In this document: positions 26,769 through 31,540 of the stretch, in pieces
How positions within the stretch are numbered: position 1 is the first letter of the stretch
How the letters are laid out: each line of letters starts with the position of its first letter
DNA from: Thiothrix litoralis
GTDB taxonomy: Bacteria > Pseudomonadota > Gammaproteobacteria > Thiotrichales > Thiotrichaceae
Assembly: GCF_017901135.1 (NCBI RefSeq)
Contig: NZ_CP072801.1
Span: forward strand, 3,407,501 to 3,471,500
Reading direction: 5' to 3'
Length of the DNA: 64,000 bases
Notes under the pieces: model-generated
What the model saw: only the letters and a program-made list of their open reading frames with translations
The model's database searches: none
What the model was told of the DNA's origin: nothing
Program-made: the position numbers and the translations under genes

Positions 26769-27371
26769 GTGCGTAATATTGCAATGCTGAGCCTGACGCT
26801 GTTGCTAACAGCGTGCGGCGGTTCTTCTAGTTCATCTACCTCCCCCCCGGTAGCGACAACTGCGACAGCATCCACCACTCCCCTTTCACCTGCCTCAGAA
26901 CCTGAGTCCATGACGGGAATGTTGGAAACTCATAATCAAGTACGGGCTGATGTTGCTGTTTTGCCACTTACATGGTCTAGCACCATGAGCAGCTATGCGC
27001 AGGAATGGGCAACTCATCTGGCCAACGAAAATGGTTGTCAAATGCAGCACCGTTCCGCTGCGGGCATGAATACCTTGGGCGTTGGCGAGAACCTTTTCTG
27101 GGCGAGTCCGCTAACATCGACCAATAGCCCTCCGACCCTACAGGCCATTACCCCTACCTACGTTGCCAATGACTGGAGTAGTGAAAAGATTGATTATAAT
27201 TACGATACCAATACCTGTACTGATGGCAAAATTTGTGGGCATTACACTCAGATAGTGTGGAAAAATACCACGGAAGTTGGTTGCGCCATGGCTATTTGCC
27301 CCGATAATGGTCAGATTTGGGTATGTAATTACAATCCACCGGGCAATTATACCGGGCAGAAACCTTATTAG
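26769..27371 (+). CDS. CAP (SCP/PR-1) domain lipoprotein
   Basis: 200 residues starting at GTG 26769, with GAGGA upstream. A lipoprotein signal ends in LLLTAC, followed by a Ser/Thr/Pro-rich linker to about residue 50. The CAP domain shows HNQVRADV, SYAQEWATHLAN, GVGENLFW, CGHYTQIVWK and the C-terminal VCNYNPPGNY, all hallmark segments. CAP proteins are secreted and bind lipids or peptidoglycan-related ligands in some systems. Role here unknown. Confidence 0.88.
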   Translation: MRNIAMLSLTLLLTACGGSSSSSTSPPVATTATASTTPLSPASEPESMTGMLETHNQVRADVAVLPLTWSSTMSSYAQEWATHLANENGCQMQHRSAAGMNTLGVGENLFWASPLTSTNSPPTLQAITPTYVANDWSSEKIDYNYDTNTCTDGKICGHYTQIVWKNTTEVGCAMAICPDNGQIWVCNYNPPGNYTGQKPY

Positions 27372-28638: not shown

Positions 28639-29868
28639 TTAGGGTAGGTTGAGCGCCCGCACGGTATTGATCAGGCCATAGCCGTAATCACTGTCACGCC
28701 CCGGATTGCCCAGATCAGTGGCAGTGGTGTTTAACACTTCAGGGTTGAAGTTTGGGTTGAGGGATTTCAACAAGGCGATGACCCCAGTGACGTGCGCCGT
28801 TGCTAGAGATGTGCCAGTGGATACCTGAAATGCACCCCGTGGTGCGGTGGTTAAAACGCCTACGCCGGGTGCAGACAAGGCAATATAATTACCACGGTTG
28901 GCGCGGCTGAAGATGCTTTCGCGTTTGTCCACGGCGGTCACGGCAATGACGCCCGGTATGGCTGCTGGATAGGCGGGTGCTGCGCCGGGCCCGCTATTTC
29001 CGGCGGAAGCCACAACGATAATGCCTTTTCGAAGCGCTGCTTGCACCAATTTGTCGACCACGGGGTCGGAGCCGCCCGCAAAACTCAAGTTGAGGATTTG
29101 CACCCCTTGATCCATCGCCAGTTGCAAGGCGCGTGCGACCAACCCGGAATTACTGCTACGTTCATCAGGATTGCTGGCATTGGTGCTGAACGCGCTGATG
29201 GCAATCAATTTGGCATCGGGTGCAATGCCAATACGCGGATTTTTGCTGGCAATAATGCCTGCGACTTCTGTGCCATGCAATTGGTTGCTGTCGTTACCAG
29301 CGGGGATCATATTCAGGCGCTGTACGTTAGGCCCAAACGCTGTGTGCGTAATATCAATGGGAGTGTCAATCATGCCGATGACAACACCGTTTCCGCCAGT
29401 GCGTTGCCGTACTGTTTGCACGCCGGTCAGGCCAAGGGGATAAGCTTGCGCATCTGTCCTGTTAAAGGCTGATGTTGTGTAGAAGTTGCTGGTGCTGGCA
29501 TCTACGTCTTTTTCACTGCTTTTGATGGATTTAACCAGATCATACGGGTCTTGCCCATTGGTGGCAGCGGTAATCAGGGTGGTGCTGATGGAATCCAGAT
29601 TATCGCTACGCTTGGCGCGTAATTTATATTTTTTCAGCACGGCATCTGCCTTCTCGGCGGGTTGCTGGCTGTCATAGGTAAGCAGCATTTCATCCTTGGC
29701 GTAATCGACCCGGCGAAAGACGGGGGTGGTCACGCAAATGCTGCTGCTGAGCTGGCAAGCGGGGGAATTGTTGGTTTTGCCAATAACTTTGTATTCTGTG
29801 GGGCTGCAAGCGGCAAGGAACAGGATGGGGGCAAGGAGGGTGAGCGGAAGAAGGCGCAGTACTGGCAT
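28639..29868 (-). CDS. Subtilisin-family (S8) serine protease lipoprotein
   Basis: 409 residues. Lipobox LAAC gives Cys21 as the lipid anchor. Residues about 55-125 form an I9-like propeptide (alpha/beta pattern before the catalytic domain). The catalytic triad is visible as D168 (GMIDTPID), H199 (HGTEVAG) and S354 (GTSLATAH), with oxyanion N291 (ASAGNSG). It is predicted to be anchored at a membrane face outside the cytoplasm. It is the last of three tightly spaced genes, after the ECF sigma factor and its anti-sigma partner, suggesting it acts in or is controlled by that signalling pathway. Confidence 0.92.
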   Translation of the reverse strand: MPVLRLLPLTLLAPILFLAACSPTEYKVIGKTNNSPACQLSSSICVTTPVFRRVDYAKDEMLLTYDSQQPAEKADAVLKKYKLRAKRSDNLDSISTTLITAATNGQDPYDLVKSIKSSEKDVDASTSNFYTTSAFNRTDAQAYPLGLTGVQTVRQRTGGNGVVIGMIDTPIDITHTAFGPNVQRLNMIPAGNDSNQLHGTEVAGIIASKNPRIGIAPDAKLIAISAFSTNASNPDERSSNSGLVARALQLAMDQGVQILNLSFAGGSDPVVDKLVQAALRKGIIVVASAGNSGPGAAPAYPAAIPGVIAVTAVDKRESIFSRANRGNYIALSAPGVGVLTTAPRGAFQVSTGTSLATAHVTGVIALLKSLNPNFNPEVLNTTATDLGNPGRDSDYGYGLINTVRALNLP

Positions 29869-29876
29869 AATGGTTT

Positions 29877-30626
29877 TCAGTATTCCCGTCCGATAAAGGC
29901 AATCACGGTTTTATCCTGCTCCATTTGTTGCAGGACAGTGCTGGATTGTTGCTGGTCATGGGGCTGGATACCCTTGACCTCAATTTTAAACAGGTTATTG
30001 TCGTCCGGGCCATCGAGGATGCGGGCATCCCACTGACGTAAAAAATCCCGTACCTGACGTACCTGAGCTTCCTCGTTGAAATCTACCAATAATACCAAGC
30101 CCTTGGCAACAGAAGTCGCAGCCTGATCATCGGCGACAGTGGCAACGTTGTAAACATTGCTTGTCGGGGAAATCATCGAGTTGGCAAACCAGCCCAAAAA
30201 GCCTGCCTGAACCAGCAATAACAAGGCGAAAGCGGTATTTCCCGGCGTCAGCCACTCAAACGTTGGCAACCAGTCCGTTAACCATGTCTTGATACCTCGT
30301 GCAGCCGCTTTAGGTTCTGGCGGCGGGCGGGGTATTGTTCCGGGCGTTGCACTGGCTTTGGCCTGCTCCTCGCGCCCGATGCGCTTCAGCAGCTTGTCCA
30401 GCCGAGAGTGCGTGGTATCCATCGCAGACAACTGCAACAACCCGGTATTGGCACGGATCATATCCACCATATTCAATTCACGGTGATACTCTTCCTTCAG
30501 TTTAGGATGTTGTGCCAGCATGTGTTCTACCAGCTTGCGTTCCGGGTCGCTCAATTTTCCGGTGATATACCAAGGTAAAAGCAGGCGTGCTTCTTCAACT
30601 GGGTCACCGTGTGGGTATTGGCTCAT
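29877..30626 (-). CDS. Single-pass anti-sigma factor with a propeptide-like outer domain
   Basis: 249 residues. Cytoplasmic residues 1-130 have a helical anti-sigma type N-terminus (ARLLLPWYITGKLSDPER) without a zinc HxxxCxxC site. There is a transmembrane helix at about 131-148. The outer domain (176-246) has the order strand, helix, strand-strand, helix, strand (LVLLVDF; QVRQVRDFLRQWD; NLFKIEV; TVIAFIG), reminiscent of the I9 inhibitor/propeptide of subtilases. It lies between the ECF sigma gene (23 bases) and the subtilase gene (8 bases). Confidence 0.75.
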   Translation of the reverse strand: MSQYPHGDPVEEARLLLPWYITGKLSDPERKLVEHMLAQHPKLKEEYHRELNMVDMIRANTGLLQLSAMDTTHSRLDKLLKRIGREEQAKASATPGTIPRPPPEPKAAARGIKTWLTDWLPTFEWLTPGNTAFALLLLVQAGFLGWFANSMISPTSNVYNVATVADDQAATSVAKGLVLLVDFNEEAQVRQVRDFLRQWDARILDGPDDNNLFKIEVKGIQPHDQQQSSTVLQQMEQDKTVIAFIGREY

Positions 30627-30649
30627 ACAACAATATTCTCAAATGCCTT

Positions 30650-31258
30650 TTAAAGGTCAAAACCAACAATGCCTGCCTTTTCCAGCAACTGTGCCAGGCG
30701 CTTACGGGCATAAAACATGCGCGTCTTGACGGTGTTGTCGGAAATATCCAGAATGTTGGCCACTTCCTTCACCGACTTGTCTTCAAAATAGGTCAGCCTG
30801 ATAACCTCACGATGTTCTTCCGTTAACTGATCCATCAGGCGTAGCAACTGCTGCTTCATATCATCCAATGCCAACTCCTCGTGAGGGCTGGCGGCAGGGT
30901 CAATCATGGAATCCAGTATAGACTCATCATCCAAGGTGATTTCCGAGGTTTTACGTAACCACGACACAACCTTGTTGCGGGCAATCGAATAAATCCAGGT
31001 CGATACCTTAGACCTGCCTGCAAAATTTTCCGCTGACCGCCAAACATCAAACATGGCCTCATCCACCAGATCTGCGGCCTGAGCAACATCATCACGCAAT
31101 ACTCTTGCGCAATACTTAACCAGCTTGGGCTGGTATCTCAGGTATAACTGACTGAATGCCTGTTGATCCCTTTGGCTAATGAGCGCCATGAGAGCTTCAT
31201 CGCTAAGTTTGCTGGCTGTTTCTGCCGGTTGTTTGTTGCCTGATGAGGGGCCTTTCAT
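30650..31258 (-). CDS. ECF-family RNA polymerase sigma factor
   Basis: 202 residues. Sigma region 2 is at about 40-105 (AFSQLYLRYQPKLVKYC; DEAMFDVWRSAENF; STWIYSIARNKVVSWLRK). Region 4 is at about 140-195 (QLTEEHREVIRLTYFEDKS then VANILDISDNTVKTRM). The first gene of a sigma/anti-sigma/subtilase operon. The sequence upstream has GAACC and, 17 bases on, GACATA, a possible autoregulated ECF promoter, though weak. Confidence 0.94.
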   Translation of the reverse strand: MKGPSSGNKQPAETASKLSDEALMALISQRDQQAFSQLYLRYQPKLVKYCARVLRDDVAQAADLVDEAMFDVWRSAENFAGRSKVSTWIYSIARNKVVSWLRKTSEITLDDESILDSMIDPAASPHEELALDDMKQQLLRLMDQLTEEHREVIRLTYFEDKSVKEVANILDISDNTVKTRMFYARKRLAQLLEKAGIVGFDL

Positions 31259-31540
31259 CTCTTATGTCGCTCTCACTGTCAGTTTGGTTCTAATTAATTG
31301 AGGCCAATCCCCAAAAAAATAATAAATGATCTTTTCTTCAACTTTCGTTGAACCGCTTACCTGATGGCAGCGACTCACTGTTAACACTACACACTCAATT
31401 AGTAATATTTCAAAAGTTATAATACTCCCTCGCAAGTCTGGCGGGTCTTCGGATCCGCCTTTTTTTTATTTACAACCCACTCATTAGCATATCATAATCA
31501 GCTTATATACAATTTTTCTTTTCAACTATTGGAAGCTGGT
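31259..31540. promoter_or_regulatory. Intergenic region with fbp promoter and short terminated leader
   Basis: 280 bases between divergent sigma and fbp genes. A consensus -10 TATAAT lies at 31418-31423 on the plus strand (the -35 is weak). A strong terminator follows only about 20 bases later, at 31440-31468, before fbp. The remainder is AT-rich and without recognisable genes. Confidence 0.55.
31440..31468 (+). terminator. Strong terminator hairpin upstream of fbp (attenuator candidate)
   Basis: Stem GGCGGGTC / GATCCGCC closed by a TTCG tetraloop and followed by eight T. No gene upstream on this strand needs it. It lies 73 bases before the fbp start and downstream of a TATAAT box, so it either attenuates fbp transcription or ends a very short RNA. 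Confidence 0.7.

What the first reader, a model, noticed from the sequence alone, without database searches (positions are those of the whole stretch)
28639..31258. ECF sigma / anti-sigma / subtilase operon where the anti-sigma carries a subtilase-propeptide-like domain
The three genes are tightly spaced (23 and 8 bases). The anti-sigma outer domain (residues 176-246) has the order of strands and helices of an I9 inhibitor domain, and the protease has its own I9-like region (55-125). This suggests the anti-sigma binds or is cut by the subtilase outside the membrane, linking protease activity to sigma release.
Basis: partly seen in the sequence, partly recalled or inferred. Interest (0 to 1): 0.6.

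Follow-up and report, generated by a model that had tools for sequence, protein, structure and literature searches.

The report
Anti-sigma factor wearing a protease prodomain
A bacterial gene switch carries, on its outer side, what looks like the small folding-and-blocking domain normally found on subtilisin-like proteases, and sits beside such a protease in many related bacteria, which suggests that the switch senses its own protease; the binding itself has not been tested.

Summary
An ECF sigma factor, an anti-sigma factor and a lipoprotein subtilase (S8) lie in that order, 23 and 8 bases apart. [quoted passage not shown] Foldseek's first hit is the subtilisin BPN' prosegment, VIA's the PC1/3 prodomain. 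Pfam Fervidolysin_NPro-like is the only family matched by more than one of 44 diverse relatives (12, best 4.7e-6), but the window's own domain is not matched. Of 77 loci with this domain, 66 have S8 beside it, 7 a caspase-like peptidase nearby, 4 neither; 6 anti-sigmas of other types have none. Best reading: a self-regulated circuit whose anti-sigma senses its subtilase through a prodomain-like domain; binding is inferred, cleavage unsupported. Against a simple inhibitor or site-1 story: the window's domain ends about five residues short of a propeptide's active-site tail, one S8 clade (13 of 64) lost the oxyanion asparagine, and S8-less genomes also carry the domain. New here: a divergent, conserved small-RNA candidate behind the same promoter-like element, kept beside the ECF gene in 28 of 34 loci. 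New variant of a known kind.

The parts
30650..31258 (-). ECF sigma factor (202 aa)
   Evidence: Sigma70_r2 1.5e-16 and Sigma70_r4_2 5.4e-15; NCBIfam best PRK12515 183 bits, under its 236-bit cut-off
29877..30626 (-). membrane anti-sigma factor (249 aa)
   Evidence: NCBIfam anti-sigma NF052375 4.2e-07, below its cut-off; zf-HC2 in 15 of 34 relatives at E up to 1, best 4.6e-07, only 0.15 in the window member
30369..30605 (-). cytoplasmic anti-sigma domain, about residues 8-86, without the Cys residues seen in some relatives
   Evidence: alignment A1; 73% mean identity among 16 same-genus members
30171..30239 (-). hydrophobic segment, residues 130-152, taken as the membrane span
   Evidence: sequence; no predictor was run
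29880..30101 (-). outer domain, residues 176-249: prodomain fold
   Evidence: AF2 pLDDT 89.8; Foldseek first hit 1spb_P; VIA first two rows PC1/3 prodomain Z 8.2 and 7.8; Pfam PF22148 in 12 of 44 diverse members, not the window's
28639..29868 (-). S8 subtilase lipoprotein (409 aa)
   Evidence: Peptidase_S8 3.7e-41; AF2 pLDDT 90.7
29806..29817 (-). lipobox LAAC, Cys21, Ser at +2
   Evidence: sequence; a lipobox-like motif is present in all 16 same-genus S8s
29473..29697 (-). S8 prodomain, about residues 58-132
   Evidence: model strands and helices; superposes on pro-subtilisin E 3whi_A
28642..29457 (-). S8 catalytic domain, about residues 138-409; Asp168, His198, Asn291, Ser354
   Evidence: the exact start is inferred
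31265..31290 (-). promoter-like element GAACC-N15-GCGACA, ending 6 nt before the ECF start codon
   Evidence: aligned in the genus; exact match at this operon in 14 of 16 same-genus genomes; in the window alone the pattern is no rarer than chance
31350..31375 (+). divergent copy of the same promoter-like element, GAACC-N15-GCGACT
   Evidence: GAACC-N15-[GA]CGAC at this place in 12 of 16 same-genus loci
31378..31467 (+). small-RNA candidate of about 90 nt: unpaired CUCCCUCGCAA followed by a terminator hairpin and U run; ends are inferred
   Evidence: core in 28 of 34 loci upstream of and divergent to the ECF gene; hairpin -16.9 kcal/mol, z -2.87; compensatory changes in the stem; one copy in the genome; no Rfam family at its gathering score

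Best explanation
The operon is a self-regulated ECF sigma/anti-sigma circuit that controls and monitors its own subtilase. The anti-sigma holds the sigma factor at the inner membrane. Its periplasmic domain has the fold of, and probably descends from, a subtilase prodomain, and most likely docks on the catalytic domain of the neighbouring subtilase where that enzyme's own prodomain sits, so that the presence of mature (prodomain-free) protease changes the state of the anti-sigma and so the output of the sigma factor. In Thiothrix the subtilase is tethered through the lipid on its prodomain, so that self-cleavage at about residue 137 would leave the lipid with the prodomain and free the catalytic domain to meet the anti-sigma. 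The sigma factor most likely acts on its own operon and, in this genus, on a divergent small RNA behind the same element. Shown: gene order, predicted folds, conservation, the conserved elements. Inferred: docking, self-cleavage, the sign of the response, autoregulation, transcription of the RNA.
For: Outer-domain model is confident (pLDDT 89.8) and 9 of Foldseek's first 13 rows are subtilase propeptides, propeptide-bearing subtilases or the propeptide-like inhibitor POIA1. Pfam PF22148 prodomain in 12 of 44 diverse members, best 4.7e-6; each other listed family in 1 member. Profile comparison of all outer domains with all partner-S8 prodomains aligns 66 columns in register, score 22.3 against at most 9.5 in 20 column shuffles. 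S8 beside 66 of 77 such loci, although 21 of 30 genomes counted hold only 1-4 S8 matches; in G023, G049, G379 and G543 the module's S8 is the only match. The outer domain is conserved (56%) where linker (26%) and juxtamembrane stretch (36%) are not, and the S8 prodomain is as conserved as its catalytic domain, 76.4 and 75.5%. GAACC-N15-GCGACA before the operon in 14 of 16 genomes; elsewhere 18 hits in the 16 genomes against 55 for the backward control; the same element divergently before the RNA. Precedent for a propeptide-like protein encoded beside subtilases and inhibiting one: SUB1-ProM, PMC6993865 (abstract and passages).
Against: No complex was modelled or measured. The fold is a common one: VIA ranks Lrp/AsnC-family chains at Z 7.2, within 1 of the second prodomain row, and no Foldseek hit reaches E 0.001. 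The window's own domain does not match PF22148, nor does any place of its genome at E 0.1; HMM searches of the PDB gave only insignificant prodomain hits (0.093 and 0.12 with A2; 0.98, fourth rank, with A6). Six of nine subgroup-by-subgroup profile comparisons do not beat the best of 20 shuffles, the window's own group (14.6 against 16.3) included. Seven loci have a C14 peptidase and four neither; G608, G258 and G125 have no S8 match. Paracoccus and Sinorhizobium have S8 beside an ECF whose second gene has another outer region.
Confidence: 0.5

Rival explanations
1. Site-1 protease model: the subtilase, once activated, uses the prodomain-like domain as a docking site, cuts the anti-sigma outside the membrane and so starts intramembrane proteolysis and sigma release.
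For: The window S8 keeps Asp, His, Ser and the oxyanion Asn; 51 of 64 S8s keep the Asn. Membrane anti-sigmas are commonly cut by a site-1 then a site-2 protease (PMC10202637, passages). The stretch beside the membrane is poorly conserved (36%).
Against: 13 of 64 partner S8s, one clade with nine family labels, lost the oxyanion Asn (Ala, Arg, Asp, Glu, Pro or Lys instead) and still keep the operon. No cleavage site can be read from the sequence. A C14 peptidase stands in for S8 in 7 loci.
Confidence: 0.22
2. [quoted passage not shown] the peptidase is an effector made under sigma control.
For: The domain occurs with C14 peptidases or with no peptidase, in genomes without an S8 match; S8 also sits beside ECFs whose second gene has another outer region; middling Z scores are shared with unrelated folds.
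Against: The only recurrent Pfam match is a subtilase prodomain and 66 of 77 loci hold a subtilase; a chance meeting of that very fold with that very enzyme is unlikely.
Confidence: 0.2
3. The domain is a plain tethered inhibitor that protects the cell from its own exported subtilase, with regulation secondary.
For: Stand-alone propeptide-like inhibitors POIA1 and SUB1-ProM; POIA1 among the first Foldseek rows.
Against: In the window member the chain ends at about residue 72 of the 77-residue BPN' prosegment and residue 64 of the Tk propeptide, so it lacks the last residues that enter the active site; relatives vary in tail length. An inhibitor would not need an anti-sigma domain.
Confidence: 0.08

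Closest known systems
ECF sigma factors with membrane anti-sigma factors controlled by regulated intramembrane proteolysis
   Same: ECF gene followed by a single-span anti-sigma with an outer domain, peptidase nearby
   Different: The outer domain is prodomain-like and the peptidase is a subtilase encoded next to it; proteolysis not shown
ECF54 group (review PMC8999054, passages)
   Same: Carboxypeptidase, subtilase and CHAT proteins reported in the neighbourhood of the ECF gene
   Different: ECF54 is described as lacking an anti-sigma factor and its model member is from Geodermatophilus; here an anti-sigma with a prodomain-like domain is present. Membership by ECF-group model could not be tested
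Stand-alone subtilase-propeptide-like inhibitors (POIA1, SUB1-ProM, TgMIC5)
   Same: Propeptide fold used outside the enzyme; SUB1-ProM lies beside subtilase genes (PMC6993865, abstract and passages)
   Different: Those are not part of an anti-sigma; here the domain is the outer end of a transmembrane protein and, in the window, lacks the active-site tail
Fervidolysin N-terminal prodomain (PF22148) and Inhibitor_I9
   Same: Fold, and profile match in 12 of 44 relatives for PF22148
   Different: Not attached to a protease; window member below detection; Inhibitor_I9 not among the families listed
Csp subtilases of Clostridium germination
   Same: A subtilase that keeps its prodomain bound, and a catalytically inactive relative proposed to signal (PMC3567191, abstract and passages)
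   Different: No sigma circuit; only an analogy for the S8 clade that lost the oxyanion Asn
Sigma-E-dependent small RNAs of enterobacteria such as MicA and RybB (from recall)
   Same: A short RNA with an intrinsic terminator behind an envelope-type ECF promoter
   Different: No sequence relation tested beyond Rfam, where no family reached its gathering score; expression and targets unknown

Membership tests
ECF sigma factor | Sigma-70 regions 2 and 4 | tested here: met
   Sigma70_r2 38-105 and r4_2 136-188, both above cut-off
ECF54 group | No anti-sigma factor in the neighbourhood | tested here: not met
   An anti-sigma lies between the ECF and S8 genes; definition taken from PMC8999054
ECF54 group | Match to the group's profile | not testable with these tools
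   No ECF-group models on hand; Casas-Pastor 2021 not held
Membrane anti-sigma factor | Anti-sigma (ZAS-like) domain | tested here: inconclusive
   Window: zf-HC2 0.15, NF052375 4.2e-07 but under cut-off; relatives: zf-HC2 in 15 of 34 at E up to 1
Membrane anti-sigma factor | Single transmembrane helix | not tested
   Hydrophobic 130-152 seen by eye; no predictor run
S8 subtilase | Asp/His/Ser triad and oxyanion Asn | tested here: met
   D168, H198, N291, S354; Peptidase_S8 3.7e-41
S8 subtilase | N-terminal prodomain in the pro-enzyme position | tested here: met
   3whi_A pro-subtilisin E Z 42.0, rmsd 2.5, 331 residues, 58-407
[quoted passage not shown]
   the fold is common, Z 8.2 at best
Subtilase prodomain (PF22148 / I9-like), for the anti-sigma outer domain | Profile match | tested here: inconclusive
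   12 of 44 diverse relatives, best 4.7e-6; 6 of 48 in A2, best 1.4e-4; window member none
Subtilase prodomain (PF22148 / I9-like), for the anti-sigma outer domain | C-terminal tail that reaches the active site | tested here: not met
   Last residue aligns to residue 72 of the BPN' prosegment and 64 of the Tk propeptide
Regulated intramembrane proteolysis by a site-1 subtilase | Cleavage of the anti-sigma by the subtilase | not testable with these tools
   Needs an experiment

The most novel reading that the evidence does not exclude
A subtilase prodomain was captured by a transmembrane anti-sigma factor and turned into a receptor for the cell's own exported protease: transcription is set by how much prodomain-free subtilase occupies the receptor, not by cutting. 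In one clade the subtilase itself lost the oxyanion Asn and became a (near-)inactive signalling ligand, in others a caspase-like peptidase took its place, and in the Thiothrix family the circuit gained an RNA arm, a small RNA whose CUCCCUCGC stretch could block ribosome-binding sites.
Probability: 0.33. Interest if true: 0.8.

Novelty: new variant of a known kind. Interest (0 to 1): 0.63.

Why it matters
To my knowledge the signals of most ECF sigma factors are unknown. If an anti-sigma reads its own protease through a borrowed prodomain, the ligand of a widespread family becomes directly testable by binding assays, and protease homeostasis would join the inputs of ECF switches; 22 of 369 sampled genomes of the class and 44 of 398 of the phylum had a match to the anti-sigma profiles, not all of them of this type. 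In the one annotated locus of this type that I read (Methylocapsa pRX1) the anti-sigma is labelled 'hypothetical protein'.

Tried and rejected
Inhibitor_I9 by sequence: not among the families listed for A1, A2 or A6 (the first two lists show 25 of 26 and 25 of 44 families); PF22148 was listed for A2 and A6 instead. PF22148 searched in the window's genome: no match at E 0.1. HMM searches of the PDB with the outer-domain profiles gave no significant prodomain hit. Subgroup profile comparisons of outer domains and S8 prodomains: six of nine no better than the best of 20 shuffles. Wider regulon by the promoter-like pattern: 18 hits away from the element in 16 genomes against 55 for the backward control; two of the 18 (G014, G002) are the divergent element of the RNA or lie beside it, and two sequences shared elsewhere (G000/G012 and G003/G011) were not followed up. 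Sites complementary to the RNA core, one mismatch allowed: the RNA locus itself in 16 of 16 genomes and three other places, not followed up. Rfam at E up to 1: only SorY, 21.8 bits against a gathering score of 111, taken as chance. A strict link between tail length of the outer domain and loss of the oxyanion Asn was considered and dropped: other members with intact Asn also have tails, and the loss is one clade, so there are no independent events to count. Co-evolution of contacts was not tried: too few sequences. The search for related loci with the window anti-sigma reached only two Thiothrix genomes, so relatives came from the genome search. Literature: ten searches listed no paper that by its title or the start of its abstract deals with a propeptide-like anti-sigma domain, in an open-licence PMC library; subscription papers, and Casas-Pastor 2021, could not be read. 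No search was made for papers on the small RNA.
Full report
WHAT IS THERE. On the minus strand lie an ECF sigma factor (30650-31258, 202 aa), an anti-sigma factor (29877-30626, 249 aa) and an S8 subtilase (28639-29868, 409 aa), with gaps of 23 and 8 bases. The genome (4.28 Mb, one contig) belongs with Thiothrix: the two named hits of the anti-sigma are T. fructosivorans (70% in the best segment) and T. caldifontis (56%). The anti-sigma has one match there and the genome has two S8 matches.

PROTEINS. The ECF has regions 2 and 4. The anti-sigma shows only weak zf-HC2 in the window (0.15) but 15 of 34 relatives match zf-HC2 at E up to 1, best 4.6e-07. Mean pairwise identities among 16 same-genus members are 73, 26, 62, 36 and 56% for cytoplasmic domain, linker, hydrophobic span, juxtamembrane stretch and outer domain. 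The S8 has triad and oxyanion Asn, a lipobox LAAC and a prodomain; its model (pLDDT 90.7) superposes from residue 58 to 407 on unprocessed pro-subtilisin E (Z 42.0). A lipobox-like motif is present in all 16 same-genus S8s; of 13 other S8s of the family listed, 4 fit the simple pattern and only L050 convincingly by eye. Among 15 same-genus S8s the prodomain is as conserved as the catalytic domain (76.4 and 75.5%).

THE OUTER DOMAIN. [quoted passage not shown] Foldseek against the PDB put the BPN' prosegment first (E 0.028, probability 1.00, TM 0.57), and 9 of the first 13 rows are propeptides, propeptide-bearing subtilases or POIA1; none reaches E 0.001. VIA-align put the PC1/3 prodomain first (Z 8.2, rmsd 2.6, 71 residues; Z 7.8 for a second entry), but an Lrp/AsnC-family regulator follows at 7.2, so fold alone does not decide. 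By sequence, PF22148 (Fervidolysin_NPro-like) was matched by 6 of 48 members of A2 (best 1.4e-4, next family 4 members, E limit 10) and by 12 of 44 members of the more diverse A6 (best 4.7e-6, each other listed family 1 member, E limit 1). The window member is not among them. Profile-profile comparison of 50 outer domains with 44 partner-S8 prodomains gives probability 29%, P 5.9e-4, 66 columns in register, score 22.3 against at most 9.5 in 20 column shuffles; but six of the nine subgroup-by-subgroup comparisons do not beat their best shuffle. Taken together I hold homology to a subtilase prodomain as likely, not proven. The last residue of the window domain aligns to residue 72 of the BPN' prosegment (77 residues by its title) and to residue 64 of the Tk propeptide, including one crystallised with SA-subtilisin after deletion of its five C-terminal residues (3a3o, title): so the domain could dock without filling the active site.

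GENE ORDER IN RELATIVES. Relatives search: 32 of 57 genomes had a match; all 33 places outside the window's genome were fetched, L033-L065. The outer domain is taken as present by alignment. S8 lies beside the anti-sigma in 31 of 33 (L053 is cut by the contig end with an S8 fragment); the two without, L058 and L061, are anti-sigmas without an ECF gene in genomes that also hold a complete set (L059, L060). Class search: 22 of 369 genomes; 18 further loci from 17 genomes: 16 carry the domain by alignment, 13 of them with S8, one with a C14 peptidase (L104), two with neither (L106, L110); L105 is cut off and L107 has another outer region. Phylum search: 44 of 398 genomes; I fetched 32 loci from 30 of the 44 genomes: 27 carry the domain (23 by an HMM trained on the earlier loci, E at most 1e-3, and L152, L160, L165, L168 by eye); 21 have S8 and 6 a C14 peptidase; the 5 anti-sigmas of other types have neither. 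By the HMM alone: 23 positive loci, 19 S8 and 4 C14; 9 negative, 2 S8, 2 C14, 5 neither. With the window: 77 loci, 66 S8, 7 C14, 4 neither; 6 loci of other type, none with either. The C14 gene is directly next to the anti-sigma in five loci and about 1.5 kb away in L162 and L163. Dropped before these counts: L105, and the 14 phylum-search genomes not fetched (two of them, G000 and G356, already counted). By my count, in 61 of the 66 S8 loci the order is ECF, anti-sigma, S8 on one strand; the others are L063 (contig begins at the anti-sigma), L145 and L147 (S8 on the ECF side), L160 (no ECF found) and L161 (anti-sigma turned round). Loci are related to each other, so these are not independent events. 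Thirty of these genomes hold 0-22 S8 matches, 21 of them 1-4; with 3 per 4.4 Mb a 12-kb stretch would hold one by chance in about 1% of cases (my arithmetic). In G023, G049, G379 and G543 the only S8 match is the module's; G608, G258 and G125 have none. On named records, Methylocapsa polymorpha pRX1 carries S8, ECF and the domain-bearing anti-sigma; Paracoccus denitrificans plasmid 1 and Sinorhizobium meliloti pSymA have S8 opposite an ECF whose second gene has a different outer region.

PARTNER S8 CLADES. In a tree of 64 S8 catalytic domains (oxyanion columns left out, one short row dropped) 13 without the oxyanion Asn form one side of a branch, support 100, with nine family labels; they keep Asp, His and Ser, and all 13 have GSS or GNS instead of GTS. 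Seven of their 13 anti-sigma domains hold the string AEP near the end, which I recall as typical of propeptides; so do L106, L110 and L160. Whether these S8s are active is unknown.

CONTROL OF THE OPERON AND A SMALL-RNA CANDIDATE. Upstream of the ECF gene GAACC-N15-GCGACA is conserved and occurs at this operon in 14 of 16 same-genus genomes (exact pattern); 18 other hits in these genomes compare with 55 for the backward control. It resembles an ECF-type promoter (recalled), would give a nearly leaderless message, and suggests autoregulation. A second copy points the other way (31350-31375, plus strand); at this place 12 of 16 same-genus loci have GAACC-N15-[GA]CGAC. About 75 bases after its start comes CTCCCTCGCAA and then a terminator hairpin with a T run (31440-31467), so that an RNA of about 90 nt is predicted, ending before the next gene. 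The core, sought with three overlapping 10-base patterns, lies upstream of and divergent to the ECF gene in 28 of 34 loci (window and L033-L065; missing in L054, L058, L061, L063, L064, L065). In nine of these loci of other genera the fructose-1,6-bisphosphatase-like gene is not in the stretch while the core is (L046, same genus, also lacks it), so the RNA goes with the ECF gene. The hairpin folds at -16.9 kcal/mol (z -2.87); on an alignment of 26 (picked by the core, so its invariance is partly by choice) the stem shows 12 cells changed on both sides against 4.4 in shuffles, 0 of 500 reaching it, with 77% of cells paired, because subgroups are shifted by a column; a slide by one column does as well on covariation. 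The core occurs once in the genome; no Rfam family reaches its gathering score. Expression, and control by this sigma factor, are inferred; outside the genus the promoter-like element was found only before L051 and L053.

MECHANISM. Most likely the anti-sigma senses the subtilase through a captured prodomain. Known from calls: anatomy, predicted fold, conservation, partner statistics. From the literature: a propeptide-like protein can inhibit a subtilase in trans, and propeptide binding uses capping acids and a C-terminal tail (PMC6993865, abstract and passages); a bacterial subtilase can keep its prodomain bound and an inactive relative may signal (PMC3567191, abstract and passages). Inferred: docking, sign of the effect, release of the catalytic domain from its lipidated prodomain. 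Cleavage of the anti-sigma is possible in the window's clade but not needed, and less likely in the oxyanion-less clade.

VERDICT. Observation confirmed; interpretation partly supported; a widespread variant of ECF/anti-sigma signalling that I found in none of ten literature searches of an open-licence library.

Noticed in passing
window 31350-31467 (+), and the same place in 27 other loci: Small-RNA candidate divergent from the ECF gene: promoter-like element as before the operon (in most same-genus loci), core CUCCCUCGCAA, terminator hairpin.
   Followed up: partly
L094, L095, L096, L099, L103, L108, L109, L151, L152, L154-L157: Partner S8s that lost the oxyanion-hole Asn and changed GTS to GSS or GNS but keep Asp/His/Ser: 13 of 64, one clade.
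   Followed up: partly
L104, L162-L166, L168: The same type of anti-sigma lies next to or about 1.5 kb from a caspase-domain peptidase (PF00656) instead of S8.
   Followed up: partly
L205 (Paracoccus denitrificans PD1222 plasmid 1), L206 (Sinorhizobium meliloti pSymA): S8 divergent from an ECF whose second gene, probably an anti-sigma, carries a different outer region.
   Followed up: no
L058 5740-6516, L061 3083-3829: Lone anti-sigmas of this family without ECF or peptidase, in genomes that also hold a full operon.
   Followed up: no
window 26769-27371 (+): 200-aa putative lipoprotein that looks like a CAP/SCP (PR-1-like) domain; name from recall, not searched.
   Followed up: no
window 29473-29697, S8 residues 58-132: In the genus the prodomain is as conserved as the catalytic domain (76.4 and 75.5%), which hints at a lasting role beyond folding.
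   Followed up: no
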